Positions 40,208 through 57,679 of a stretch of 64,000 nucleotides of DNA are shown here, piece by piece. The DNA lies in IMG/VR virus record IMGVR_UViG_3300036045_000002, positions 16,086 to 80,085 of that record; one strand, written 5' to 3'. The position numbers were made by a program, and so were the translations under genes. A model generated the notes under the pieces. The model did not search any database and had not been told where the DNA came from. It saw only the letters and a list, made by a program, of their open reading frames with translations. Every line of letters starts with the position of its first letter. The stretch's first letter is position 1. Source of the DNA: a virus.

Positions 40208-40435
40208 GTGCCTGACAGCAAACCCAAAACGAAGCCGCCCAACGTCCCCCGGGAACTGTACGACCTCGCGAAGCGGATCATCGCCCAGACGATCATCCGC
40301 AACGCCAAGCATTCCGCCCAGGCCAAGGAACTCAAGGACACCACCGCGAACGTCCGGCTGGTGGCCAAGACCCTCAACGACTTCGTTGAGGTACTCCGGG
40401 CCGAGATCGACCGCCAACTCGGGTGGGAGGAGTGA
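40208..40435 (+). CDS. Small helical hypothetical protein
   Basis: This 75-residue helical protein (ELYDLAKRIIAQTIIRNAKH, TLNDFVEVLRAEIDRQL) starts at GTG 40208 after AAGGAGTCCGTC. It ends two bases before the next gene's start. No family is recognised. Confidence 0.55.
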   Translation: MPDSKPKTKPPNVPRELYDLAKRIIAQTIIRNAKHSAQAKELKDTTANVRLVAKTLNDFVEVLRAEIDRQLGWEE

Positions 40436-40437
40436 CC

Positions 40438-41637
40438 GTGCTGACCTGGAAGAAGCGCAAGGACGGGTCGCTAATCGCGAGGGCCGGCAAGGAGGTCTAT
40501 ACCGTCCACCGGCTCCCGCCGAAAGGCGTCCGGGTCTACCCGATCTTCCGGCTCGGGAAGGACAACAAGCGGCTGTACGACGCGAAAGGCGACTCCGGCA
40601 AGGAGGTCTGCAAGCGGGTCGCCGGCAGGCTGCACTCCGGGGTCAAGTCGGCCTACGACACCGTCCGGACGAAGCTGTCGAAGGACCTGGTGGACGCCTT
40701 CGAGTACCACGTCGAGGTCTTTTACACCAAGTACGTCCCGCGGACTGGGAAAGACTACTGCCCGGACAAGGGGATGTTCCTGGCGGCCGCGAAGGCCGGG
40801 AAGAGTCCTTGGTTGTTGGTCAACACGACCGACGGCCTGTACGACAACTACAGGCCGGACTTCCTCGACGCCTTGTCACTGGAACTATTCCCGGTCTGGT
40901 ACCGCGAAGAGGTCGAGTTGGCGAAGGCGAAGGCGGCCGCGAAGGCGAAGCAAGACGAGGAGGATAAGAAGGCGAACGCCGGTTACTTCGCCCAGACGGC
41001 TTCCGCCGCTAAAAGTCCTGTCAAAGTGGGAAAATACTCGGGCCCCGAACCCGAGTCGCGGGAGAGCAAAAGGCGGCCCCTTTCCGTGCCCACGGTCTAC
41101 GCACCAGTCCCGTTCAAGCCCGAGGACGCGAAGTTCGCCACGCTCTACAAGTGGGCCGAGCGGGTCCGGGACTGGTGGGAGGTCAGGGGCCGGTTCGCGA
41201 CGTATGAGTACCTGTCCTACGCGGCCCGGTATTGTTGCTTCCAGTCTTTCGACCGAGGGACGCTCGCCGCGGACAGGATGGCCCTCATCTACCGCCAGGA
41301 GGCCGGAAGGCGTCAGGCGGCAAACCAGGCCAGGATGGCCGTCGCCGGGCGGAAGGAGGCCCCAGGCGAGACGCCGGCGAAGAAGGCCCCGGGTAAGCTA
41401 GCACCCGAACGGAAGAAGGTCGAAAAGGACGGGTGGGGGTTCAAGAAGACGACCCGGGCCGCCGCCGTCAACGCCGTCTTGACCAAGGAGCCGAAAACGT
41501 TAAAACGGATCGAGCGGGAGTCCAAGGCGACGTCCGTGTCGAGCCACCTGGCCCGGCTCGTCCGGGACAAGAAACTCAAGCGGGTCGGGAAAGACCAGTA
41601 CCGACTCCGCAAGGGCGTGAAGCCTGCCAATTCCTGA
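40438..41637 (+). CDS. Protein with C-terminal winged-helix domain
   Basis: This 399-residue protein has a globular N-terminal part (KRKDGSLIARAGKEVYTVHR), a Lys/Ala-rich linker (about residues 160-205), and a C-terminal DNA-binding domain (about 335-395: GWGFKKTTRAAAVNAVLTKE, then SSHLARLVRDKKLKRVG). The same C-terminal domain ends the next gene, and a related one is at 18737. The first part is unknown. The GTG at 40438 follows GGGAGGAGTGACC. Confidence 0.65.
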   Translation: MLTWKKRKDGSLIARAGKEVYTVHRLPPKGVRVYPIFRLGKDNKRLYDAKGDSGKEVCKRVAGRLHSGVKSAYDTVRTKLSKDLVDAFEYHVEVFYTKYVPRTGKDYCPDKGMFLAAAKAGKSPWLLVNTTDGLYDNYRPDFLDALSLELFPVWYREEVELAKAKAAAKAKQDEEDKKANAGYFAQTASAAKSPVKVGKYSGPEPESRESKRRPLSVPTVYAPVPFKPEDAKFATLYKWAERVRDWWEVRGRFATYEYLSYAARYCCFQSFDRGTLAADRMALIYRQEAGRRQAANQARMAVAGRKEAPGETPAKKAPGKLAPERKKVEKDGWGFKKTTRAAAVNAVLTKEPKTLKRIERESKATSVSSHLARLVRDKKLKRVGKDQYRLRKGVKPANS

Positions 41638-41749: not shown

Positions 41750-42667
41750 ATGCAGGTCAAGAAGTCCGACGCCCTCCAGGTGTTCCAGGCCCTCAAGTTC
41801 CAGAACTGCGCGGCCTGGAACGCCGAGAAGATGACCGAGAAGCTGAACGCCCTCGGCGAGGTCGTGGACGACGCGATGGTCAAGAAGCTCAAGGACCCGG
41901 TCGTGGTGAAGACCCTCAAGAACGTCCTCAAGGCCCTGGCCAAGGACGAGGAGGTCACCATCACGGATGACGCAAAGGCCAAGCCGGCCCCCGCCGCCAA
42001 GGCCACGCCGCCGAAGAAGGGCAGGACGCCGGAGCCGGAGGACGCGGACGAGGAGGAAGAAACGGACGACGAAGAGGACGAGGAAGAGCCCGAAGAAGAA
42101 GACGACCAGGACGACGAACCCGAGGACGAATCAGACGACGAAGACGAGGACGAGGAGGAAGAGCCCTCCGAGGACGAGGAGGGCGACGACGACTCGGACG
42201 AGGAGGACTCGGACGAGGAGGACGACACCGACGAGTCGGACGACGACGAGGACAAGGAGTCGGACGACGAAGCCGAAGACGAGGAGGACGAGGAGATGGA
42301 AGCGCCGGCGAAGAAGAAGAAGACCGCGGCGGCCCCCGCCAAGAAGCAGGCCGCCAAGGCCCCCGAGAAGGGCAAGGTGGCGGCCGCGAAGAAGGGCATC
42401 CCGAAGGCCGGGCCCGGCGGGTCGCTGGAGAAGGACAAGTGGGGCTTCCGGACGCCGAGCCGGACGGCCCGCATCAACGCCGCCCTGTCGGACAAGCCGC
42501 AGTCGGTCAAGGAGTTGGAGCAGAAGGCCAAGGCCACCAGCATCCACTCGCACCTGGGCAAGCTGAAGCTGATGGGCCTCGTGGTCAAGGACGCCGAGGG
42601 TCGGTTCATGCTGTCCAAGAAGGGGGGCGGCAAGGGGCCGGCCCCGAAGGCCGCCGCGAAGAAGTGA
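41750..42667 (+). CDS. Histone-like protein with acidic block and winged-helix end
   Basis: This 305-residue protein has three zones. Residues 1-75 are a helical domain (KSDALQVFQALKFQNCAAWN). Residues 95-185 are an extreme Asp/Glu run. A Lys/Ala/Pro segment (186-225) like histone H1 tails follows. The C-terminal 75 residues are a winged helix (GFRTPSRTARINAALSDKP, then HSHLGKLKLMGLVVKDAEGR) closely related to the end of the previous gene. This layout suits a nucleoid or DNA-packing protein, or a histone-mimic chaperone. GAGGAGACC precedes the ATG. Confidence 0.65.
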   Translation: MQVKKSDALQVFQALKFQNCAAWNAEKMTEKLNALGEVVDDAMVKKLKDPVVVKTLKNVLKALAKDEEVTITDDAKAKPAPAAKATPPKKGRTPEPEDADEEEETDDEEDEEEPEEEDDQDDEPEDESDDEDEDEEEEPSEDEEGDDDSDEEDSDEEDDTDESDDDEDKESDDEAEDEEDEEMEAPAKKKKTAAAPAKKQAAKAPEKGKVAAAKKGIPKAGPGGSLEKDKWGFRTPSRTARINAALSDKPQSVKELEQKAKATSIHSHLGKLKLMGLVVKDAEGRFMLSKKGGGKGPAPKAAAKK

Positions 42668-42722: not shown

Positions 42723-43178
42723 ATGCACGCGATCACGGTCACAATCCCGTTCTGCGCCGGCCATCGGGTCCTCGGGCACCAAGGCAAGTGCCAGTACCTG
42801 CACGGCCACAACTACCGGGCGGTCGTAACCTTCGAGTCGGACGGACTCGACCATATGGGGTTCGTGGCCGACTTCGGCGTGGTCAAGGACCGACTCAAGA
42901 CGTGGATCGACTCGGCCTGGGACCACAACTTCATCGCCCACCCCCACGACCCGCTCGTCCAATTGTGGGGGCAAGTAGATGTGGTCGGGGGCCTCTTTGG
43001 CAACCCGGGCCACGCCAGGAAGCCTTACGTCATGAGGTGCCACGGAAACCCGACCGCCGAGAACATGGCGAAGGAATTGGCGACCTTTGCGGCCGAGGTC
43101 GCCAAGGAGAACGAGTGCGACCTGGCTGAGGTCGTGATTTACGAAACCGACACGTCGATGGGTCGGTATGTGCCGTAG
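42723..43178 (+). CDS. queD: QueD, 6-carboxy-tetrahydropterin synthase
   Basis: This 151-residue T-fold enzyme makes 6-carboxytetrahydropterin from dihydroneopterin triphosphate, the second step towards 7-deazaguanines. Zinc ligands appear in FCAGHRV and YLHGHNYRAVV, and the catalytic Cys is in GKCQYLHGHNY. FVADFGVVK and NPTAENMAKELA are further family motifs. It is followed by queE and folE. The ATG at 42723 has AAGGAGTCTTCC upstream. Confidence 0.92.
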   Translation: MHAITVTIPFCAGHRVLGHQGKCQYLHGHNYRAVVTFESDGLDHMGFVADFGVVKDRLKTWIDSAWDHNFIAHPHDPLVQLWGQVDVVGGLFGNPGHARKPYVMRCHGNPTAENMAKELATFAAEVAKENECDLAEVVIYETDTSMGRYVP

Positions 43179-43227
43179 CCGATTGGCCCGCCCGCAAACC
43201 TCAACCGAGACCTAACGGAGACCTCCG

Positions 43228-43476
43228 GTGCCGCACGTCGCTAACCCCCCGGCCTACCTGGCCCGCTCGTCCGTCAGCAAGTACGTCCACGAAGGCCGGG
43301 TCGCCAGGTTCGTCGGCGACGGCGCTCCTCTCCCGCCCAGGCCGGCGACCTGCTTCTCACTGGAGCAGGCCCTGACCAACATGAACTGGTCGCTCTCGTC
43401 CATCGACGAAGGCGTCCGGCGAGGCGTCCTGGAGTTCTTCCGCAAGGCCGGCAAGGCCTTCATCCGCATCCTGTGA
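43228..43476 (+). CDS. Small hypothetical protein in the que cluster
   Basis: This 82-residue protein (SSVSKYVHEGRVARFVGDGA, ending RKAGKAFIRIL) starts at GTG 43228 with CGGAG upstream. Its stop overlaps the queE start as GTGA. No family is recognised; coupling suggests a role or regulation linked to the deazaguanine pathway. Confidence 0.55.
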   Translation: MPHVANPPAYLARSSVSKYVHEGRVARFVGDGAPLPPRPATCFSLEQALTNMNWSLSSIDEGVRRGVLEFFRKAGKAFIRIL

Positions 43477-44225
43477 GGCCGACAGTGAGTGACTCACCGA
43501 TTAAATCGAAACTGGTCGAGCCGGGCCGTCAGAACCTCCAGACGGTCGAGAAGCAAGACCTCGACCCGGGCCGCCCATACGAGGTCTTCAAAGTCTGGAA
43601 GACGATCCAGGGCGAAGGCCCGTTCGCCGGCCGGCCGGCCGTGTTCGTCAGGCTGGCCGGGTGTAACCTCCAGTGCCCGGCGTGTGACACGGACTACACG
43701 TCCCGCCGGGACTTGATGTCCACCCACACGCTGTTCGCGGAGGTCGTCAAACTGGCCACCCGCGGCCTGGTCGTCTTCACCGGGGGCGAGCCTTTCCGCC
43801 AGCGACTCGGGCCGATCGTCCGGGAGTTGATTCACACGGGGGACTACTCCGTGCAGATCGAGACCAACGGCACCCTGTGGGACGAGGACATGCCGTGGTT
43901 CGGCGACCTGACCGTCGTGTGCTCGCCGAAGACGCCGAAGATCCACCCGCTCACGGAGGAGCGGGTCAACTACTACAAGTACGTGGTCGAAGACGGTCAC
44001 ATCGACCCGGTGGACGGCCTGCCGACCCGCGTCCTGGGGGCCCCGTGCGCGGCCCACAAGCCGAGGCCGCACTTCCCCCGGCACAAGGTGTACATCCAGC
44101 CGATGGACAACGGGCCGTGGCTGGGAGGCATGACCGGGAACAACGTCCACGCCGCGGCCGAGGTGTGCATGCGGCACGGGTACACGCTGAGCCTCCAAAT
44201 CCACAAGATACTCGGACTCGAATAG
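43473..44225 (+). CDS. queE: QueE, 7-carboxy-7-deazaguanine synthase
   Basis: This 250-residue radical SAM enzyme rearranges carboxytetrahydropterin to 7-carboxy-7-deazaguanine (CDG). KTIQGEGPFAGRPAVFVRLA is the typical start, then GCNLQCPACDTDYT with the CxxxCxxC iron-sulphur site, VFTGGEPF for SAM contact, and IETNGT. GTG at 43473 overlaps the previous stop; GTG at 43485 is an alternative. Confidence 0.92.
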   Translation: MRPTVSDSPIKSKLVEPGRQNLQTVEKQDLDPGRPYEVFKVWKTIQGEGPFAGRPAVFVRLAGCNLQCPACDTDYTSRRDLMSTHTLFAEVVKLATRGLVVFTGGEPFRQRLGPIVRELIHTGDYSVQIETNGTLWDEDMPWFGDLTVVCSPKTPKIHPLTEERVNYYKYVVEDGHIDPVDGLPTRVLGAPCAAHKPRPHFPRHKVYIQPMDNGPWLGGMTGNNVHAAAEVCMRHGYTLSLQIHKILGLE

Positions 44226-44259
44226 CCTGCGCCCGCGACAGGCGAGACTGAAAACGCTG

Positions 44260-44300
44260 GCGACCCGGGCCTCCGGCGGTCGAGGCCCGGGTCGCTTTTT
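44260..44300 (+). terminator. Strong intrinsic terminator after queE
   Basis: A perfect 14-bp stem (44260-44273 with 44282-44295, GCGACCCGGGCCTC and its complement), 8-base loop and five Ts. Confidence 0.92.
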
Positions 44301-44328
44301 CCTAGACCGACAGCCGGAGTTTTCCGCC

Positions 44329-44907
44329 ATGCTGGTGACACGCCCGCCTCGACCGACCCACCACGAGGCCGTCCAGGCCGTCAAGACGCTCCTCCGGTAC
44401 GTCGGCGAGGACCCCGACCGGGAAGGACTGCTGGACACACCGGAGCGGGTGCTCCGGGCGTACTCCGAACTCCTGGCCGGGTACGACCGGCAGGCCGGGT
44501 TCCAACTCAAGACGTTCGCCGACGGCGTGTGCGACGAAATGGTCGTGGTCAAAGGGATCGAGTTCACCAGCTTCTGCGAACACCATTGGCTGCCGTTCTC
44601 CGGCGTCGCCCACGTCGGGTACCTGCCGGACACACGGATCGTGGGCCTGTCGAAGATCCCGCGACTCGTGGACGTGTTCGCCAAGCGGCTCCAGGTGCAG
44701 GAGAGGATGACCCAGCAGGTTGTGGACGCCTTGCAGGAGTACCTGGCCCCCAAGGGGTGCGGGTGCGTGGTCGTCGCGTCCCACTCGTGCATGTCGTGCC
44801 GGGGCGTCAGGAAGCAGAACGCCACCATGACCACGTCCGCCTTGCGGGGGGCGTTTAAAGCGGACGCTTCGACCCGGGCCGAATTCCTGTCCATCGTGAG
44901 AGGGTGA
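44329..44907 (+). CDS. folE: FolE, GTP cyclohydrolase I
   Basis: This 192-residue enzyme makes dihydroneopterin triphosphate from GTP, the entry step for the que pathway. Family marks are DTPERVLRAYSELLAGY, EFTSFCEHHWLPFSGVAHVG (zinc Cys and His pair), LVDVFAKRLQVQERM and SCMSCRGVRKQNATMTT (second zinc Cys). It stands behind a terminator, so it may start a new unit, although no clear promoter is seen. The ATG at 44329 has CGGAG about nine bases upstream. Confidence 0.95.
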   Translation: MLVTRPPRPTHHEAVQAVKTLLRYVGEDPDREGLLDTPERVLRAYSELLAGYDRQAGFQLKTFADGVCDEMVVVKGIEFTSFCEHHWLPFSGVAHVGYLPDTRIVGLSKIPRLVDVFAKRLQVQERMTQQVVDALQEYLAPKGCGCVVVASHSCMSCRGVRKQNATMTTSALRGAFKADASTRAEFLSIVRG

Positions 44908-44910
44908 GTC

Positions 44911-45252
44911 GTGCCTAACCGAAAGGCCGTCAAGAACCGGTACGCCGGAAGAAAATCAACGGCCGGCCCGACCAGGCCGAACACCTGGAGGTACGGTCGG
45001 GTGGAGCCTACGGCCAAGGCCGGCCTGTACCTGCTGAAACTCCGGAGCAGGGTAGACGTTTGCCAGGTCGTCTACCTGCCTCGGGAGGACAACCCGGACG
45101 CGACGTACCTGGCCGTGGTCTGCCGGGGCCTGACGCGGGAGTTCAAACACTGGTCGGACCTGCACGACCTGGTGCGGGACGAGGTCGTGATGTACTACGG
45201 CCCCGTCCAACCGTACAACGACAACACCAACCCGAACCTCCCAGGAGGGTGA
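44911..45252 (+). CDS. Hypothetical protein in deazaguanine cluster
   Basis: This 113-residue protein starts at GTG 44911, three bases after folE. It is basic at the N-terminus (RKAVKNRYAGRKS) and has strand-rich sequence (AGLYLLKLRSRVDVCQVVYL). It ends one base before the next gene. No family is recognised. Confidence 0.55.
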   Translation: MPNRKAVKNRYAGRKSTAGPTRPNTWRYGRVEPTAKAGLYLLKLRSRVDVCQVVYLPREDNPDATYLAVVCRGLTREFKHWSDLHDLVRDEVVMYYGPVQPYNDNTNPNLPGG

Positions 45253-45253
45253 C

Positions 45254-45643
45254 GTGCTCAGCTTCAACACCGCGGTGTGGGTCAAGGCGCGGTTCACCGC
45301 GTTGCACCGGTGGAAGGACGCCCCCGACGAGGCCGCCTTCCTGCGGGACTACCACCGGCACGAGTTCCACGTGGAACTCGGCGTCAAAGTCAACCACGAC
45401 GACCGGGACGTGGAATTCTTGAAACTCAAGAACGACCTGCAGTGCCTGCTCCTGGCCGTCTACCACAACGAGACCTTCGACCACTCCTGCGAGCAGGTCG
45501 CCTCGCAGATCCTGACCAGGTACCACGACGCCGGGTGGGACGTGGCCTACTGCAAGGTGAGCGAGGACGGCGAGAACGGGGCGACCGTCTACGCCGTCAA
45601 GCCCCTCCAAGTCGTCGTCCCCTTCCGGCCGGAGGAGAACTGA
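45254..45643 (+). CDS. T-fold protein, divergent QueD/PTPS relative
   Basis: This 129-residue protein has FTALHRWKDAPDE, then YHRHEFHVELGVKVN, EFLKLKNDL and SCEQVASQIL, the order of QueD/pterin synthase motifs (AxHR, HRHEF in place of HGHNY, DF/EF helix, xxENxA). The catalytic Cys before the HxH motif is missing. It may bind a pterin or deazaguanine, or serve as a structural subunit. GTG start with GGAGGGTGAC; its stop overlaps the glycosyltransferase start (TGATG). Confidence 0.55.
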   Translation: MLSFNTAVWVKARFTALHRWKDAPDEAAFLRDYHRHEFHVELGVKVNHDDRDVEFLKLKNDLQCLLLAVYHNETFDHSCEQVASQILTRYHDAGWDVAYCKVSEDGENGATVYAVKPLQVVVPFRPEEN

Positions 45644-46911
45644 TGCTCTACTACCTGCCACTCGAACCGTACAAGGAACGGTACACGATGCAACTCTCGG
45701 CGGCCGAGACCGGCTGGTTCGAGAGGAACTGGTTGGCGGCCAACGTCAACTACAAACGGATCCAGCCTCCGTTCTCGACGCCTACGACCCCGCCAAGGTC
45801 GATCAAGACCGGGCGGGTGCTGGACGCGGTGGGGAGGTCGCGGTGGGCGATGGGGCAGATCGACCAACTCCTGTCGCTGGCCGACCGGGACTACATCTCC
45901 AGCACCGACGTGATCTACCTGGACGACTTCTGGCACCCCGGCGTCCAGGCCCTCCCGTACCTGTTCCAGCAGAAGGGCATCAAGCCCCGGATGTACGCCT
46001 TCTGCTGGGCGCAGTCCGTTGACCAGTACGACTTCACCTACGCGATGCGGGACTGGATTCGGCACTTCGAGCGCGGCACGGCCGCGCTCCTGGACGGGGT
46101 GTTCGTCGCGTCCACGGAACTCAAGACCCTGCTCGCCCGGGAGTGGGTTGCGCACGAAGGCAAGGTCGAGGTCGTCGGCCTGCCGTTCGACTCGGGTGAG
46201 GTCAAATCGAGAATGCCTGAGGACTACCAGGTGTACACGGACCGGGACCGGCTGTCCAAGCTGATCGACGTGTCCGGTTACCCGACCGAAATGCCCCGAA
46301 AGAACCAGGTCGTGTTCTCGTCCAGGTGGGACCGGGAGAAGGACCCGCAGTTCTTCTGCCGGGTGGCGGAAATCGTCCTCCGGGAGACCCAGGACGTCAA
46401 GTTCGTCGTCTGCTCCTCGGCCGACGTGATCCGGTCTAACTACCCCGGCCTGGTGAACAGCCTGGACGACATGGCGATCCGGCACCCGCACAACTTCCAG
46501 GTCGCGACCGGGCTGACGAAGGAGGCCTACTACCGGATTCTGACCGAGTCCAAGGTCCAGTTCAACTGCGCCGACCAGGACTGGGTGTCGTTCACCCTCC
46601 TGGAGGCCGTCACGGCCGGCTGCTACCCGCTGTACCCGTACTTCCGGAGTTTTCCCGAGACGTTCGACCGGGACATGCGGTTCATGTACCCGAAGGACAA
46701 CGAGCAGGAGGCCGCGAAGAAGCTCCTGGCCGTCCTCCGGACGCCGGACGACCTCTGGGCCGCCGACCAGATCGCCGAAAGGCAGCAGATCGTCCGGCGG
46801 CACGACATGACCTGGATGCGAATTCTTGACAGGATGCAAGTCCACTTCGACTGTGACCCGGAGACCCGCAAGAAGGTGCGAAAGGAAGCGTACGCGCCGG
46901 GCGCTGTCTAG
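45643..46911 (+). CDS. Glycosyltransferase, GT-B type (GT4-like)
   Basis: This 422-residue protein reads as a GT-B glycosyltransferase. The N-terminal half has STDVIYLDDFWHPGVQALPY and later VFVASTELKTLL and VEVVGLPFDSG, typical of the donor-domain entry. Residues about 225-310 (NQVVFSSRWDREKDPQFFCR) and VSFTLLEAVTAGCYPLYPYF (the E-x7-E-like GT4 motif with Glu and Gly) complete the fold. In this cluster it may add sugar to a modified base, but capsid or host targets are also possible. It starts one base into the previous stop. Confidence 0.7.
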   Translation: MLYYLPLEPYKERYTMQLSAAETGWFERNWLAANVNYKRIQPPFSTPTTPPRSIKTGRVLDAVGRSRWAMGQIDQLLSLADRDYISSTDVIYLDDFWHPGVQALPYLFQQKGIKPRMYAFCWAQSVDQYDFTYAMRDWIRHFERGTAALLDGVFVASTELKTLLAREWVAHEGKVEVVGLPFDSGEVKSRMPEDYQVYTDRDRLSKLIDVSGYPTEMPRKNQVVFSSRWDREKDPQFFCRVAEIVLRETQDVKFVVCSSADVIRSNYPGLVNSLDDMAIRHPHNFQVATGLTKEAYYRILTESKVQFNCADQDWVSFTLLEAVTAGCYPLYPYFRSFPETFDRDMRFMYPKDNEQEAAKKLLAVLRTPDDLWAADQIAERQQIVRRHDMTWMRILDRMQVHFDCDPETRKKVRKEAYAPGAV

Positions 46912-46937
46912 CGAAAACTCGCAGACCCCGCGCCATT

Positions 46938-47029
46938 CGCTCTAGAATCGCGTCTGGCGCGTTTTCAACTCGAAAGTGACTCTCTTCTCAGTTTCGTCGG
47001 GACCTCGCGCCAGACGCGATTCTAGAGCG
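46938..47029. repeat. 24-bp perfect inverted repeat around the TCTAGAGCG element
   Basis: The left arm 46938-46961 is the exact complement of 47006-47029, with a 44-base spacer that contains CTCGAAAGTGACTC. The right arm ends in the same 16-base core (ACGCGATTCTAGAGCG, 47014-47029) that closes the 29-bp element elsewhere. It precedes AAAGGGACTGCC and the GTG at 47042. Confidence 0.8.
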
Positions 47030-47041
47030 AAAGGGACTGCC

Positions 47042-47779
47042 GTGACCGACAAGTACGACAACCGCAACCACCCTTTGTTTGAAGGACAGAACAACCAGAA
47101 CTCGCTCAACCTGGGACTCACGACGTTCTGCACCATGCGGTGCCCGAACTGCTCCATTTCCGTCCCGAAGCACAAGGCCGAGAAGACGGCTAAGGACGCG
47201 AGCGTGTCGGACATCATCCGGGACTCCCGCTGGATGCGGGGCCTGCGTCGCGTCCATCTGACCGGAGGAGAGCCTCTTCTCCACCCCGACTTCAGGTACG
47301 TCGCCGAGCACGCCCGCGACTGGTTCCACTGCTCTTACCTGACCGTCGAGACGAACGGCCACCTGTACCACAAGTACAAGGACGTGTTCCGGACGTTTGA
47401 CCTGGTGTTCGTGACCCATTACGAACAAGACACGATCTACCCGGGCAACCCGGGCAACGGTCACATCGTGGACCTAGTCCAACAAGACCTAGGAGACCGG
47501 ATGATCCGGGAGCCTCCGGTCAGGCACGAACACGGCCACGGAATCCGGGAACAACTCGTCCAGCTGAACGCGTCCAAAGGACAACTCCCGGAGGACGTGG
47601 CCTGCTCCAAGTACCGGAACCCGGGCCTCCCGGCCGGCTGGTACGACGGCAAGGTCTACGCCTGCTGCGTGTCGTTCGGCATCAGCTCGGAGCTGGGAAT
47701 TCCGGTGACCGAGGACTGGCGACAGCGAATTCAGAATCTGGCGAAAGGCTGCATCAAGTGCTGCTACCACGGGACGTGA
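47042..47779 (+). CDS. Radical SAM protein in modification cluster
   Basis: This 245-residue protein has CTMRCPNCS, the CxxxCxxC site for a 4Fe-4S cluster, VHLTGGEPLLHPDF (GGE SAM motif), and a Cys-rich end (CCVSF, later CIKCC) that may hold an auxiliary cluster, as in SPASM or twitch proteins. It differs from QueE. Lying directly before the DpdA-like gene with a 1-base gap, it may act on the deazaguanine base or nucleotide. GTG start after AAAGGGACTGCC. Confidence 0.75.
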   Translation: MTDKYDNRNHPLFEGQNNQNSLNLGLTTFCTMRCPNCSISVPKHKAEKTAKDASVSDIIRDSRWMRGLRRVHLTGGEPLLHPDFRYVAEHARDWFHCSYLTVETNGHLYHKYKDVFRTFDLVFVTHYEQDTIYPGNPGNGHIVDLVQQDLGDRMIREPPVRHEHGHGIREQLVQLNASKGQLPEDVACSKYRNPGLPAGWYDGKVYACCVSFGISSELGIPVTEDWRQRIQNLAKGCIKCCYHGT

Positions 47780-47780
47780 C

Positions 47781-48845
47781 ATGGGTACCTCTGGACAAGG
47801 GCTGAAACGGCTGAAGCGGAACAAGTCGGTCGTGTCCCTCCAAGGCATGGACAGGCAGTGCCGGAGCCTCTGGCTGGACTCCGGAGCCCACAGCCTCTAT
47901 CACCAACACTGCTTCAAAACCGCTACCGTACCAATCAAGAGAAAGGTGGTCGTAGACGGAAAGGAAAAGATTGTCTCGTTCTTCCGGCGGGTCCCGATCA
48001 AGGGTCAGAAAAGGTTCGACTGGTTCGGTAAACCTGACAACCTGTCCAAGGCCTTTATCGCCTACCTGAAGGCCTACGCCGACTTCGTCCGGAAAAACGA
48101 GTCCGGTATCGACTACTACGCAAACGTGGACGTAATTTACAGCCCGGCCTTGTCCTGGGCCGCTCTCAAACACCTGGAGAAGGATGAGGGACTGCGCCCC
48201 GTTCCGATCATTCACCACGGCACCGACTTGGACTGGGTCGAACGCCATCTGAACGCCGGCTACAAATACATCGGGCTAGGTGGCCTGGGCCAGGAATCGA
48301 ACGTCGAGACTTACCACAGAGACACGGACAAGGTCTACAACCTTCTGTGCGATAACAAGGACCGGTTACCGTGTGTGAGGACACACGGGTTTGCGATGAC
48401 CAGCTACAAACTGCTGATCCGGTACCCGTGGTGGTCGGTCGATTCGACCAGCGCCTACCGGGTCGCCGGATTCGGCAGTATATTCCTCCCACACCGCCGG
48501 GCCGGGAAGTGGGACTTCTCTATCGCCCCGTACATCGTCGCCTTCAGCAGCCGGAGTTCGGCCAAAAAAGGGAAAAGGAAGCACATCGCCTACTTTCAGA
48601 ACTCCGACATGAAACTGCACCGGCAGATATTACTAGACTGGCTCGCCGAGATCGACATGCCGCTAGGCGAGATGGGCGAAGATGACGAGGTAATTACCTA
48701 CGGCGTCGCGTCCGAATACAACGCCCGTGCCGTCGCCAACCTGAAGTTCTTCCAGAAACTGTGTGACTGGCTGCCGAAATGGCCGTGGCCGTTCAAGATC
48801 GACACGGACGTGGGCAAGTTCGTTCCGGACCGGAGACTGAAGTGA
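47781..48845 (+). CDS. DpdA/TGT-like deazaguanine transglycosylase
   Basis: This 354-residue protein resembles the TIM barrel of tRNA-guanine transglycosylase and phage DpdA. LWLDSGAHSLY (about residues 30-40) is the strand with catalytic-type Asp. YYANVDVIYSP follows. VPIIHHGTDLDWVERHLNAG and YIGLGGLGQ match the QGG and GGL segments. THGFAMTSYKLLIRYPWWSV then DSTSAYRVAG resembles the strand with the second Asp (DMFDCV-like). The enzyme would swap guanine in DNA for a 7-deazaguanine. The first strand and helix of the barrel are absent from the N-terminus. It is coupled to the next gene, which seems to encode them. Confidence 0.65.
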   Translation: MGTSGQGLKRLKRNKSVVSLQGMDRQCRSLWLDSGAHSLYHQHCFKTATVPIKRKVVVDGKEKIVSFFRRVPIKGQKRFDWFGKPDNLSKAFIAYLKAYADFVRKNESGIDYYANVDVIYSPALSWAALKHLEKDEGLRPVPIIHHGTDLDWVERHLNAGYKYIGLGGLGQESNVETYHRDTDKVYNLLCDNKDRLPCVRTHGFAMTSYKLLIRYPWWSVDSTSAYRVAGFGSIFLPHRRAGKWDFSIAPYIVAFSSRSSAKKGKRKHIAYFQNSDMKLHRQILLDWLAEIDMPLGEMGEDDEVITYGVASEYNARAVANLKFFQKLCDWLPKWPWPFKIDTDVGKFVPDRRLK

Positions 48846-49072
48846 GAATCTACTTCTCAGGCGGGAGTCCCATTCCGGAGGCCAACCTCCGTGACCCGCC
48901 TCCGGACATCATGCTGTCGATGTTCGTGGACGCGAGCAACGGCGAGCCGAGGTCGAGGCTCCGGAAGATCCTGGACATCCGGACGAAGGCCAAGGCCCTG
49001 AAGCTGAAGAAAGGAAAGCCCGATGCGACCAGAAAAGCCAAGCCGCCCGTCGAGCGTAAGACGCCTCGCTGA
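48842..49072 (+). CDS. Small protein resembling the missing N-terminus of the DpdA-like barrel
   Basis: This 76-residue protein starts at a GTG that overlaps the DpdA-like stop as GTGA. RIYFSGGSPIPEANLRDPPP followed by DIMLSMFVDASNG reads like the first beta-alpha-beta of DpdA/TGT-type enzymes (YFSGG, P-E helix, iMLSyF strand), normally placed before the LDSGAH strand. A basic end (KAKALKLKKGKPD) follows. It could complete the barrel in trans. It overlaps the clamp gene by 50 bases. Confidence 0.6.
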   Translation: MRIYFSGGSPIPEANLRDPPPDIMLSMFVDASNGEPRSRLRKILDIRTKAKALKLKKGKPDATRKAKPPVERKTPR

Positions 49073-55467: not shown

Positions 55468-56942
55468 TGCGCCCAACGACCAGGCAAGCCTACAAGTTCT
55501 TCCACGAAGGCACGAAAGTCCTGTCCAGGATCGAAGGCAACGGCGTCCAGATCGACGTTGGCTACCTGGACAGGACGATCAAGCGGGTCTCGGACGAGAT
55601 CGACCGGAAGACCGAGGCCCTCCGGGAGTCGAAGGTCTACGCCAAGTGGAAGAAGCGGTTCGGCCGGAAGGCCAACCTGGACAGCACCCCGCAACTCGCG
55701 GACGTCCTGTTCAAGGACATGGGGTTCGAGCCGACCGAGTTCACCGAGAAGACGAAGGACCTGGACGAGCACCAGCGCCGGCACAAGACCGACGAATACT
55801 CCCTCCGGAACATCGACCATCCCTTCATCAAGGACTTCTTCTCCGTCCGGAAGCTCAAGAAGGTCCTCGGCACCTACCTCAAAGGCGTCCGCCGGGAGGT
55901 CACGCCGACAGGCCTCCTGCACCCGTCGTACAACCTGGCCGGCGGCCAGACCGACGACCAGAAAGGCGGGGCCGCGTCCTACCGGGGGAGTTCGTCCAAC
56001 CCTAACTTCCAGAACATCCCCATCCGCAACAAGGTCATGGGCGGGCTCATCCGGCCGTGCTTCGTCGCCAGGAAAGGCCGGAGACTGGTCGAGCGGGACT
56101 TCTCCGGCATCGAGGTCCGGGTCAGCGCCTGCTACAACAAGGACCCGAACCTCATCCGGTACATCAACGACAAGTCCACGGACATGCACCGGGACGAGGC
56201 GTGCGAACTGTTCATCCTCAAGCCGGACCAAGTGGTCAAGGGGACGACGCGGGACGCCTCTAAGAACATGTGGGTCTTCCCACAATTCTACGGCAGCGTC
56301 TGGTTCCAGTGCGCCCCGCCGATCTGGGAGGCGATGGACCGGCGGGACTTCCGGGTCGGCGAGTCCGGGATCACGATCCGGGAGCACCTCAGGAGGCACG
56401 GCATTACCGAACTCGGGGAGTGCGACCCGGAGAAGGGCGAGCCGGGAAAGGGGACGTTCGCCCGCCACCTGATGCAGGCCGAGAAGAAGCTCTGGAACGA
56501 CCGGTTCCCGGTCTACACGAAGTGGAAGAAGGACTTCTACAACCGGTACCTGGAGCGCGGGTACTTCGACCTGTACACCGGGTTCAGGTGCGCCGGCCTG
56601 TTCCGCCGCAACCAGGTCATCAACTTCCCGGTCCAGGGGGCCGCGTTCCACTGCCTGCTCTGGACGCTCATCGAGATCCAGAAGGAGATCGACCGACGCC
56701 GGATGCGGACTCTCCTGGTCGGCGAAATCCACGACTCGTTCTTCGGCGACTGCCCGGAGGACGAGGTCCAGGAGTACCTGGACCTGACGGGCGAGATCGC
56801 GGAGGAGAGGCTGCCCAAGGCGTGGGACTGGATCAACGTGCCGATCGAGACCGAGGTGGACGTCGTCCCGGCCGGGAAGTCGTGGTACGACAAGGAGCAG
56901 TGGGTCAGGAACGCCAAGGGCGTGTGGGAGGCCAAGGCGTGA
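55467..56942 (+). CDS. Family A DNA polymerase, polymerase domain only
   Basis: This 491-residue protein holds the Pol I palm, fingers and thumb without exonuclease domains. SSNPNFQNIPIRN is the usual pre-motif A sequence; motif A is ERDFSGIEVRV; motif B is RDASKNMWVFPQFYGSVW (Lys and YG); motif C is GEIHDSFFGD, with Ser where most have Glu. An insertion of about 80 residues lies between motif B and C. Proofreading seems to come from the UDG-exonuclease protein, and 5' nuclease from the gene at 63149. ATG 55467 overlaps the previous stop. Confidence 0.92.
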   Translation: MRPTTRQAYKFFHEGTKVLSRIEGNGVQIDVGYLDRTIKRVSDEIDRKTEALRESKVYAKWKKRFGRKANLDSTPQLADVLFKDMGFEPTEFTEKTKDLDEHQRRHKTDEYSLRNIDHPFIKDFFSVRKLKKVLGTYLKGVRREVTPTGLLHPSYNLAGGQTDDQKGGAASYRGSSSNPNFQNIPIRNKVMGGLIRPCFVARKGRRLVERDFSGIEVRVSACYNKDPNLIRYINDKSTDMHRDEACELFILKPDQVVKGTTRDASKNMWVFPQFYGSVWFQCAPPIWEAMDRRDFRVGESGITIREHLRRHGITELGECDPEKGEPGKGTFARHLMQAEKKLWNDRFPVYTKWKKDFYNRYLERGYFDLYTGFRCAGLFRRNQVINFPVQGAAFHCLLWTLIEIQKEIDRRRMRTLLVGEIHDSFFGDCPEDEVQEYLDLTGEIAEERLPKAWDWINVPIETEVDVVPAGKSWYDKEQWVRNAKGVWEAKA

Positions 56943-57679
56943 GGAAGTTCAAATTCGACAAAGGCGTGTTGGTCAACGCCGACTGCCTGGACGTCCTCCG
57001 TCACGTCCGCGAGAACTCGGTGGACCTCATATTCGCCGACCCGCCGTTCAACGTCGGCTACAAGTACGACCGGTACGACGACAGGCGGGACCCCGACGAA
57101 TACCTGTCCTGGTGCGAGAAGTGGATCGCGGCCTGCTGGCAGTGCCTGAGGCCGTCCGGGTCGATCTTCGTCGCCATCGGGGACGAGTTCGCCGGGCACT
57201 TCAAGGTAATCCTGGACACGTTCTTCGACCCGCGGAACTGGATCGTCTGGCACTACACGTTCGGGGTATACTGCGACACCAAGTTCGGGCGTGGCCACGC
57301 CCACGTCTTCTACCACACCAAGGGCAAGAAGGGGTTCACCTGGAATCCGGACGAGATCCGGGAGCCGTCGGCCAGGCAACTCAAGTACAACGACAAGCGG
57401 GCCAACCCCAAGGGCCGAGTCCCGTGCGACGTTTGGAACTTCCCGCGGGTGTGCGGGACGTTCAAGGAGCGGACAGGACACCCGTGCCAGATGCCGGAAT
57501 CGCTCCTCGAACGGATCGTCAAGGTCTCGTCCAACCCGAACGACGTGGTCCTAGACCCGTTCGCCGGCAGCGGGACGACCCTGGCCGTCGCGAACAAACT
57601 CGGCCGACGGTTTATCGGGTGCGAGATTTCCGACGCCTACGCCCGCTCCGCAGCGATCCGAATTCGACGGGGGCGATGA
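56939..57679 (+). CDS. DNA methyltransferase, beta-class (N6-adenine or N4-cytosine)
   Basis: This 246-residue protein has DLIFADPPFNVGYKYDRYDD (motif IV DPPF, about residues 29-48) before DVVLDPFAGSGTTLAVANKL (motif I FxGxGT, near residue 205), the order of beta-class enzymes. No target-recognition insertion of note is visible, so it is a solitary MTase. It could protect phage DNA from host restriction. The GTG at 56939 overlaps the polymerase stop as GTGA. Confidence 0.9.
   Translation: MRKFKFDKGVLVNADCLDVLRHVRENSVDLIFADPPFNVGYKYDRYDDRRDPDEYLSWCEKWIAACWQCLRPSGSIFVAIGDEFAGHFKVILDTFFDPRNWIVWHYTFGVYCDTKFGRGHAHVFYHTKGKKGFTWNPDEIREPSARQLKYNDKRANPKGRVPCDVWNFPRVCGTFKERTGHPCQMPESLLERIVKVSSNPNDVVLDPFAGSGTTLAVANKLGRRFIGCEISDAYARSAAIRIRRGR

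What the first reader, a model, noticed from the sequence alone, without database searches (positions are those of the whole stretch)
42723..49072. 7-deazaguanine DNA modification cassette with extra enzymes and no QueC
FolE, QueD, QueE and a DpdA-like protein are present, and QueC is not visible in the window. That predicts either CDG as the inserted base, a queC elsewhere, or use of host QueC. A glycosyltransferase, a separate radical SAM protein and a T-fold paralogue sit inside the cluster, so a further-modified (possibly glycosylated) deazaguanine is conceivable. Families are established; the final product is inference.
Basis: partly seen in the sequence, partly recalled or inferred. Interest (0 to 1): 0.8.

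Follow-up and report, generated by a model that had tools for sequence, protein, structure and literature searches.

The report
Phage cassette for sugar-coated deazaguanine DNA
This virus carries a guanine-swapping DNA-modification cassette in which the usual nitrile-making enzyme QueC is replaced by an unstudied QueD-like protein plus a sugar-transferring enzyme; the same swap recurs in many unrelated phages and predicts an undescribed, sugar-bearing DNA base that could shield phage DNA.

Summary
One + strand cassette (42723-48845) encodes QueD, QueE, FolE, a second PTPS-like T-fold protein, a GT4-type glycosyltransferase (GT), a radical SAM protein and a DpdA with its catalytic aspartates. 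QueC is absent from the whole 80,085-base record.

The surroundings give the meaning. The T-fold and GT families are widespread in viruses. In a sample of 80 loci fetched by DpdA alone, 35 carry T-fold plus GT and no QueC, 33 carry QueC and neither, 12 carry none of the three, and none carries both. The swap occurs in a second DpdA clade at the same genomic position (phage Moby versus ACP17). The T-fold is a QueD homologue that keeps the zinc histidines but has lost QueD's catalytic cysteine.

Best reading: FolE-QueD-QueE make CDG; the T-fold takes QueC's place, probably by decarboxylating CDG; DpdA inserts the base; the GT glycosylates it. Cassette, QueC absence and swap are shown by sequence. 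T-fold chemistry, glycosylation and product are inferred.

From memory, the 2023 literature proposes a CDG decarboxylase (DpdL); that paper was not available. If DpdL is this T-fold, only the GT branch is new.

The parts
42723..43178 (+). QueD (6-carboxytetrahydropterin synthase); keeps the Cys-x3-His-x-His and D-H motifs of active QueD (KCQYLHGHNY, WDHNF)
   Evidence: Pfam PTPS 1e-28, PHROG QueD-like 2.6e-34; motifs read from the translation
43228..43476 (+). 82-aa ORF of unknown function; codon bias is coding-like
   Evidence: no family match; GC3 0.90
43473..44225 (+). QueE (7-carboxy-7-deazaguanine synthase, radical SAM), motif CNLQCPAC
   Evidence: PHROG QueE-like 3.5e-49; NCBIfam QueE models below cut-off
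44329..44907 (+). FolE (GTP cyclohydrolase I) with the CEHH motif
   Evidence: Pfam 9.9e-71; NCBIfam folE above cut-off
44911..45252 (+). 113-aa ORF of unknown function; codon bias is coding-like
   Evidence: no family match; GC3 0.85
45254..45643 (+). T-fold (PTPS-like) paralogue that replaces QueC: keeps H18, H34, H36 (zinc triad of QueD), has invariant Leu30 where QueD has its catalytic Cys, plus family-specific H48, R51, E54, S78-C79-E80, E104-D105-E107
   Evidence: phrog_17812 1.6e-14; 50-sequence alignment A3; AlphaFold2 pLDDT 93; closest fold E. coli QueD, Z 14.6, rmsd 2.1 over 111 residues, 19% identity
45643..46911 (+). GT4-type (GT-B) glycosyltransferase, translationally coupled to the T-fold gene; donor-site residues R227 and K232 (SRWDREKDP) and D312-x7-E320 (numbering of alignment A4)
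   Evidence: alignment A4; AlphaFold2 pLDDT 87; best folds BshA and other GT4 enzymes, Z 27.6, rmsd about 3 over 320 residues; TGATG overlap
46976..47779 (+). second radical SAM protein (CTMRCPNC plus C-terminal cysteines as in SPASM/twitch proteins); the start is uncertain and conserved sequence begins near 47069
   Evidence: Pfam Radical_SAM 2.7e-09; 49% identical homologue at the same place in L183; not found in any other fetched locus
47781..48845 (+). DpdA-like DNA guanine transglycosylase (DpdA1 type) with the conserved DSG (D13), D97, H125, H182 and D201 of alignment A5
   Evidence: PHROG 1.2e-28; alignments A5 and A6; tblastn to Edwardsiella phage ZHS 34% and phage 9g

Best explanation
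The cassette makes and inserts a modified 7-deazaguanine by a route in which a two-gene module, T-fold plus GT, replaces QueC. FolE, QueD and QueE turn GTP into 7-carboxy-7-deazaguanine (CDG). The T-fold enzyme, a QueD relative with the zinc site but without QueD's catalytic cysteine, then acts on CDG. The most likely reaction is loss of the carboxylate to give 7-deazaguanine (DG), so no amide, nitrile, preQ1 or archaeosine is made. DpdA exchanges guanine in the phage DNA for the deazaguanine base. The GT4 enzyme adds a sugar, either to the free base or to the base in DNA, giving a glycosylated deazaguanine. The radical SAM protein may modify it further. The bulky base would block host nucleases. 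Shown by sequence: gene content, QueC absence, replacement pattern, folds and active-site residues. Inferred: T-fold reaction, sugar, acceptor position and order of steps.
For: Complete FolE-QueD-QueE-DpdA set and no QueC in the record. In 80 loci fetched by DpdA alone, T-fold and GT are together in 35 and QueC is in none of those; of the other 45, 26 have QueC by profile and 7 more by Pfam, and none has T-fold or GT. Dereplicated: 27 T-fold+GT, 28 QueC, 9 neither, 0 both; Fisher p 1.1e-10, not corrected for relatedness. On the DpdA1 tree the two states change place 5 times at the fewest, at least 2 forced by well-supported branches. Same swap in the DpdA2 clade at one position: Moby pol-recA-FolE-ino1-QueC-DpdA-QueE-helicase versus ACP17 pol-recA-QueD-FolE-DpdA-GT-Tfold-QueE-helicase; pf16 and KVP40 have QueC and no T-fold. 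T-fold also sits with a third DpdA type, without this GT. T-fold-positive isolates MA9V-3, X1, RHph_I1_18, ZZ01, phi19:2, ACP17, PA5oct, Phosso, Roos and Bakedbeans lack QueC above cut-off. GT donor-site residues are intact. Sugar-related genes occur with the module elsewhere: second GTs, an FkbM methyltransferase, a nucleotidyltransferase/mannose-6-phosphate isomerase-type protein.
Against: No nucleoside analysis exists for any T-fold+GT phage in the papers I could search. T-fold activity is unknown. A decarboxylated base has no obvious oxygen or nitrogen handle at C7 for O- or N-glycosylation, so either the GT acts at an unusual position or the T-fold does something else. Forced independent swaps are few (2 pairs), too few for a significant phylogenetic sign test. 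The DpdA2 loci were mostly fetched by T-fold or GT and are not an unbiased sample. One T-fold isolate, Vibrio phage D479, has a partial QueC-family match (33 bits) about 100 kb away.
Confidence: 0.6

Rival explanations
1. The phage inserts CDG itself (dCDG); T-fold and GT act elsewhere and only happen to be nearby.
For: QueC is absent and QueE present. From memory, dCDG has been reported in phage DNA (Cui et al. 2023, not held); Hutinet et al. 2019 suggested it for phage Bipper, which lacks queC (PMC6884629).
Against: T-fold accompanies QueC loss in three DpdA types, GT is in all 35 T-fold loci of the DpdA1 sample and in none of the 45 others, and T-fold and GT share a start-stop overlap.
Confidence: 0.12
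2. The product stops at 7-deazaguanine (dDG): the T-fold is the CDG decarboxylase and the GT serves another purpose such as cell-surface or protein glycosylation.
For: T-fold occurs without GT in DpdA3 loci and in nine diverged DpdA1 loci, and in Cellulophaga phages of the phiST group. dDG and a CDG decarboxylase named DpdL are known to me from memory of Cui et al. 2023 (not held).
Against: In DpdA1 loci GT is gained and lost together with the T-fold. The GT lies inside the cassette, next to T-fold or DpdA, in unrelated phages and in Magnetospirillum contigs.
Confidence: 0.18
3. The host supplies QueC (or preQ0), so the phage DNA carries dPreQ0 or dADG and the T-fold is a redundant QueD.
For: Host supply of 7-deazaguanine precursors to phages that encode DpdA alone is discussed in PMC6884629. 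The host of this virus is unknown.
Against: Does not predict T-fold/QueC exclusion. The T-fold lacks QueD's catalytic Cys and D-H dyad in all 50 aligned members, and the cassette already has a complete QueD.
Confidence: 0.06
4. FolE, T-fold and GT make a pterin glycoside, like the cyanobacterial tetrahydrobiopterin glucosides, while QueD/QueE/DpdA form a separate function.
For: The GT model aligns with tetrahydrobiopterin glucosyltransferases (Z about 23.6; other GT4 enzymes score higher), and FolE and PTPS-like enzymes are pterin enzymes.
Against: The module trades places with QueC, a deazaguanine enzyme, and travels with QueE and DpdA. FolE and QueD are also present when T-fold and GT are absent.
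Confidence: 0.04

Closest known systems
Phage DpdA systems with preQ0 pathway (Hutinet et al. 2019, PMC6884629: 9g, CAjan, Rosebush, nt-1)
   Same: FolE, QueD, QueE and a DpdA transglycosylase in one cassette, presumably for DNA protection
   Different: No QueC, no QueF; T-fold and GT in their place. That paper's main text does not mention glycosylation
dDG/dCDG phages and the proposed CDG decarboxylase DpdL (Cui et al. 2023, NAR; from memory, not held)
   Same: QueC-free branch from CDG; T-fold-only phages such as Cellulophaga phiST may be of this kind
   Different: The GT, the radical SAM proteins and the module swap with QueC are not part of that description as I recall it; whether DpdL is this T-fold could not be checked
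QueD / PTPS (E. coli QueD, 4ntk)
   Same: T-fold, zinc-binding three histidines, C-terminal Glu
   Different: Catalytic Cys replaced by invariant Leu, no D-H dyad, new conserved His48, Arg51, Glu54, Cys79
GT4 glycosyltransferases (BshA, MshA, SenB, TarM)
   Same: GT-B fold and donor-site residues
   Different: About 10% sequence identity; own N-terminal motif EPYxxRYT and QDWVSxTxxE; linked to DpdA
T4-type DNA glucosyltransferases on 5-hydroxymethylcytosine
   Same: Would work alike: sugar added to a modified phage base
   Different: Would act on a guanine analogue put in by base exchange; not among the top fold matches listed
tRNA queuosine glycosylation (mannosyl-/galactosyl-queuosine)
   Same: Sugar on a 7-deazaguanine nucleoside (from memory)
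   Different: tRNA, sugar on the cyclopentenediol side chain, for which this cassette shows no genes; no match to that enzyme family in Pfam

Membership tests
Phage DpdA-type 7-deazaguanine DNA-modification system | DpdA transglycosylase with catalytic aspartates | tested here: met
   PHROG 1.2e-28; D13, D97, D201 conserved
Phage DpdA-type 7-deazaguanine DNA-modification system | Base-synthesis genes FolE, QueD, QueE in the same cassette | tested here: met
Phage DpdA-type 7-deazaguanine DNA-modification system | 7-deazaguanine derivative present in virion DNA | not testable with these tools
   needs nucleoside mass spectrometry
preQ0/ADG/archaeosine branch | QueC in the genome | tested here: not met
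   no PF06508 match in the 80-kb record; 0 of 64 related records above cut-off
preQ1/archaeosine branch | QueF or QueF-like enzyme | tested here: not met
   only a sub-threshold match that is FolE; Gat and ArcS were not searched separately
QueD (for the T-fold paralogue) | PTPS T-fold with zinc His triad | tested here: met
QueD (for the T-fold paralogue) | catalytic Cys four residues before the HxH motif and Asp-His dyad | tested here: not met
   invariant Leu30 and no dyad in 50 sequences; the cassette's own QueD has both
DpdL (proposed CDG decarboxylase) | sequence membership and decarboxylase activity | not testable with these tools
   paper not held; no text on it found
GT4 glycosyltransferase | GT-B fold with R/K phosphate-binding pair and E(D)-x7-E motif | tested here: met
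   R227, K232, D312-x7-E320 conserved; Z 27.6 to BshA
GT4 glycosyltransferase | transfer of a sugar to deazaguanine or DNA | not testable with these tools
   needs enzyme assay

The most novel reading that the evidence does not exclude
A widespread, undescribed branch of DNA hypermodification: phages replace QueC by a T-fold/GT pair and build a glycosylated 7-deazaguanine in DNA, in some lineages further modified by radical SAM enzymes or a second sugar. If the T-fold leaves C7 bare, the sugar would sit at an unusual position, possibly C-linked.
Probability: 0.5. Interest if true: 0.88.

Novelty: new variant of a known kind. Interest (0 to 1): 0.76.

Why it matters
The 7-deazaguanine DNA bases known to me carry small groups at position 7. 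A glycosylated deazaguanine would add a bulky, T4-like shield to that family, made by base exchange rather than by a modified dNTP. The module (a protein family of unknown function, phrog_17812, plus an unnamed GT) occurs in hundreds of viral contigs and in cultured phages of Pseudomonas, Acidovorax, Xanthomonas, Synechococcus and Sinorhizobium, so the question can be tested at once by mass spectrometry on existing isolates. It also gives a checkable function to a QueD-like enzyme and makes QueC absence predictive rather than puzzling.

Tried and rejected
Search for DpdA and radical SAM relatives by single proteins gave nothing; alignments were needed. The first DpdA alignment was too diverse to search. 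No paper held covers DpdL or dDG, and no paper held reports nucleosides of a T-fold+GT phage. PDB sequence search found no relative of the GT. QueF as a substitute for QueC was rejected. The idea that the radical SAM protein is part of the core was rejected: it is in only one other genome, though unrelated radical SAM proteins hold similar places elsewhere. T4 alpha/beta-glucosyltransferases and the queuosine mannosyltransferase do not appear among the listed fold matches; this is not evidence against kinship. I first counted 19 DpdA1 loci as lacking both QueC and T-fold; the Pfam model then found QueC in 7 of those records.
Full report
What is there. The window is bases 16086-80085 of an 80,085-base viral record. 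DNA polymerase, clamp, clamp loader, ribonucleotide reductase, thymidylate synthase, helicase and UvsX-like genes mark it as a phage. On the + strand at 42723-48845 lie QueD, an 82-aa ORF, QueE, FolE, a 113-aa ORF, a small T-fold protein, a glycosyltransferase (GT), a radical SAM protein and a DpdA-like transglycosylase. Codon bias is coding-like in all nine, and the T-fold stop overlaps the GT start (TGATG) behind a strong ribosome-binding site. QueC and QueF are absent from the record.

The base-synthesis enzymes look active. QueD has Cys-x3-His-x-His and a D-H pair, QueE has CNLQCPAC, FolE has CEHH, and DpdA keeps the aspartates invariant in its family. These should make 7-carboxy-7-deazaguanine (CDG) from GTP and exchange a deazaguanine into DNA, as shown for other phages (PMC6884629).

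The T-fold protein is a QueD relative with a different active site. It matches Pfam PTPS only marginally and PHROG family 17812 of unknown function. With 50 relatives the model is confident (pLDDT 93) and closest to E. coli QueD (Z 14.6). The three zinc histidines are invariant. QueD's catalytic cysteine position is an invariant leucine and the D-H dyad is missing, while H48, R51, E54, S78-C79-E80 and E104-D105-E107 are invariant in this family. It should therefore hold a pterin or deazaguanine but do other chemistry.

The GT is a GT-B enzyme of the GT4 kind. The model (pLDDT 87) matches BshA and similar enzymes over about 320 residues (Z 27.6), and the donor-site residues R227, K232 and D312-x7-E320 are conserved in 16 relatives. 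By sequence no solved structure is found.

Related loci show a replacement. Nearly all loci have DpdA and parts of FolE/QueD/QueE; none has QueC. Because those loci were chosen by T-fold or GT, I drew a second sample by DpdA alone, with two QueC phages in the query. Of 80 loci, 35 have T-fold and GT and no QueC, 26 have QueC and neither T-fold nor GT, 19 have none of the three, and none has both QueC and T-fold. Whole-record searches with the Pfam model found QueC in 7 of the 19 and in none of 24 T-fold records tested, nor in 40 further T-fold/GT records. After dereplication: 27, 28, 9 and 0; Fisher p 1.1e-10 (L219 was counted by its near-identical longer copy L220). This p ignores relatedness. 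The DpdA tree needs at least 5 changes between QueC and T-fold, at least 2 of them forced by well-supported branches; a sign test on so few pairs has no power.

The same exchange is visible in another DpdA clade among isolates. Between the polymerase/recA genes and the replicative helicase, Stenotrophomonas phage Moby has FolE-ino1-QueC-DpdA-QueE, while Acidovorax phage ACP17 has QueD-FolE-DpdA-GT-Tfold-QueE, and Xanthomonas phage X1 has FolE ... GT-DpdA-Tfold-QueE. KVP40 and pf16 have QueC. T-fold is absent from Moby, KVP40, pf16, ZHS and M39. QueC is below cut-off or absent in MA9V-3, X1, RHph_I1_18, ZZ01, phi19:2, ACP17, PA5oct, Phosso, Roos and Bakedbeans; Vibrio phage D479 has a distant partial QueC-family match. 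A third DpdA type occurs with T-fold but without this GT.

Reading. T-fold takes the step that QueC would take, and GT is tied to T-fold in the DpdA1 and DpdA2 clades. The simplest chemistry for a zinc T-fold acting on CDG is decarboxylation to 7-deazaguanine. I recall that a CDG decarboxylase (DpdL) and the DNA nucleosides dDG and dCDG were proposed or reported in 2023 (Cui et al., NAR); the paper is not held, so I could not test whether DpdL is this family. The GT then predicts a sugar on the deazaguanine. Support comes from other lineages: second GTs, an FkbM methyltransferase and a sugar nucleotidyltransferase/mannose-6-phosphate isomerase-type protein. Radical SAM proteins of three unrelated types sit between T-fold, GT and DpdA in T-fold+GT loci, and the commonest of them (13 loci) was not seen in QueC loci. 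Where the sugar is attached is unresolved, because a bare C7 offers no usual acceptor.

What is shown and what is not. Shown: genes, absence of QueC in the record, exclusion pattern, folds, conserved residues. Inferred: T-fold reaction, GT acceptor and sugar, order of DpdA and GT, protection of DNA. No experiment on any T-fold+GT phage was found.

Limits. The record is linear and may be a fragment. Loci are the best 80 of larger sets. HMMs were built here from few seeds and trained on fetched loci. The DpdA type numbers used here for related loci (1, 2, 3) are my own labels by similarity to ZHS, ZZ01 and MA9V-3 and may not match published numbering exactly. The host is unknown.

Noticed in passing
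L017:10284-11687; also L012, L032, L039, L048, L218, L225, L231, L233, L244, L247, L250, L255: A radical SAM protein of about 450 aa (weakly like B12-type HpnJ/PhpK; some copies shorter) lies between T-fold and GT (L218: between GT and DpdA) in 13 DpdA1 loci and was not seen in QueC loci.
   Followed up: partly
L198:8041-8802 and L093:11068-11817: An FkbM-type methyltransferase between T-fold and GT, and a GT2-like second glycosyltransferase between GT and DpdA: possible decoration of the sugar.
   Followed up: partly
L099:7042-7824: RfaE-like nucleotidyltransferase joined to a mannose-6-phosphate-isomerase-type cupin, in 49 of 102 DpdA2 T-fold loci; may supply the sugar donor.
   Followed up: partly
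L004:5084-5545: Phosphoribosyltransferase (annotated xanthine-guanine PRTase) in many T-fold loci; could salvage the guanine that DpdA releases from DNA.
   Followed up: no
L001:9458-10339: In Chryseobacterium phage MA9V-3 the T-fold domain is in frame behind what looks like an HNH-type endonuclease domain.
   Followed up: no
L277:6841-10896; also L281, L282, L286: Magnetospirillum contigs carry GT, T-fold, DpdA and QueD together without FolE, QueE or QueC found within 8 kb, possibly a minimal bacterial version using host enzymes.
   Followed up: partly
L267:6293-10062 and L275: Amycolatopsis genomes hold T-fold, QueD, QueE, FolE and DpdA beside apparent phage structural genes, so probably prophages.
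   Followed up: no
L298:3505-4755: Stenotrophomonas phage Moby has a myo-inositol-1-phosphate synthase inside its QueC-type cassette.
   Followed up: no
window 40423-41637 and 41750-42667: Two upstream proteins with similar C-terminal ends (WGF...), the second with a very acidic middle part; acidic proteins with a comparable end lie near FolE in L206 and others.
   Followed up: no
window 56270-57679: An ORF matches phage DNA methyltransferases (PHROG 67, 2.8e-69), so the phage may carry a second DNA modification.
   Followed up: no
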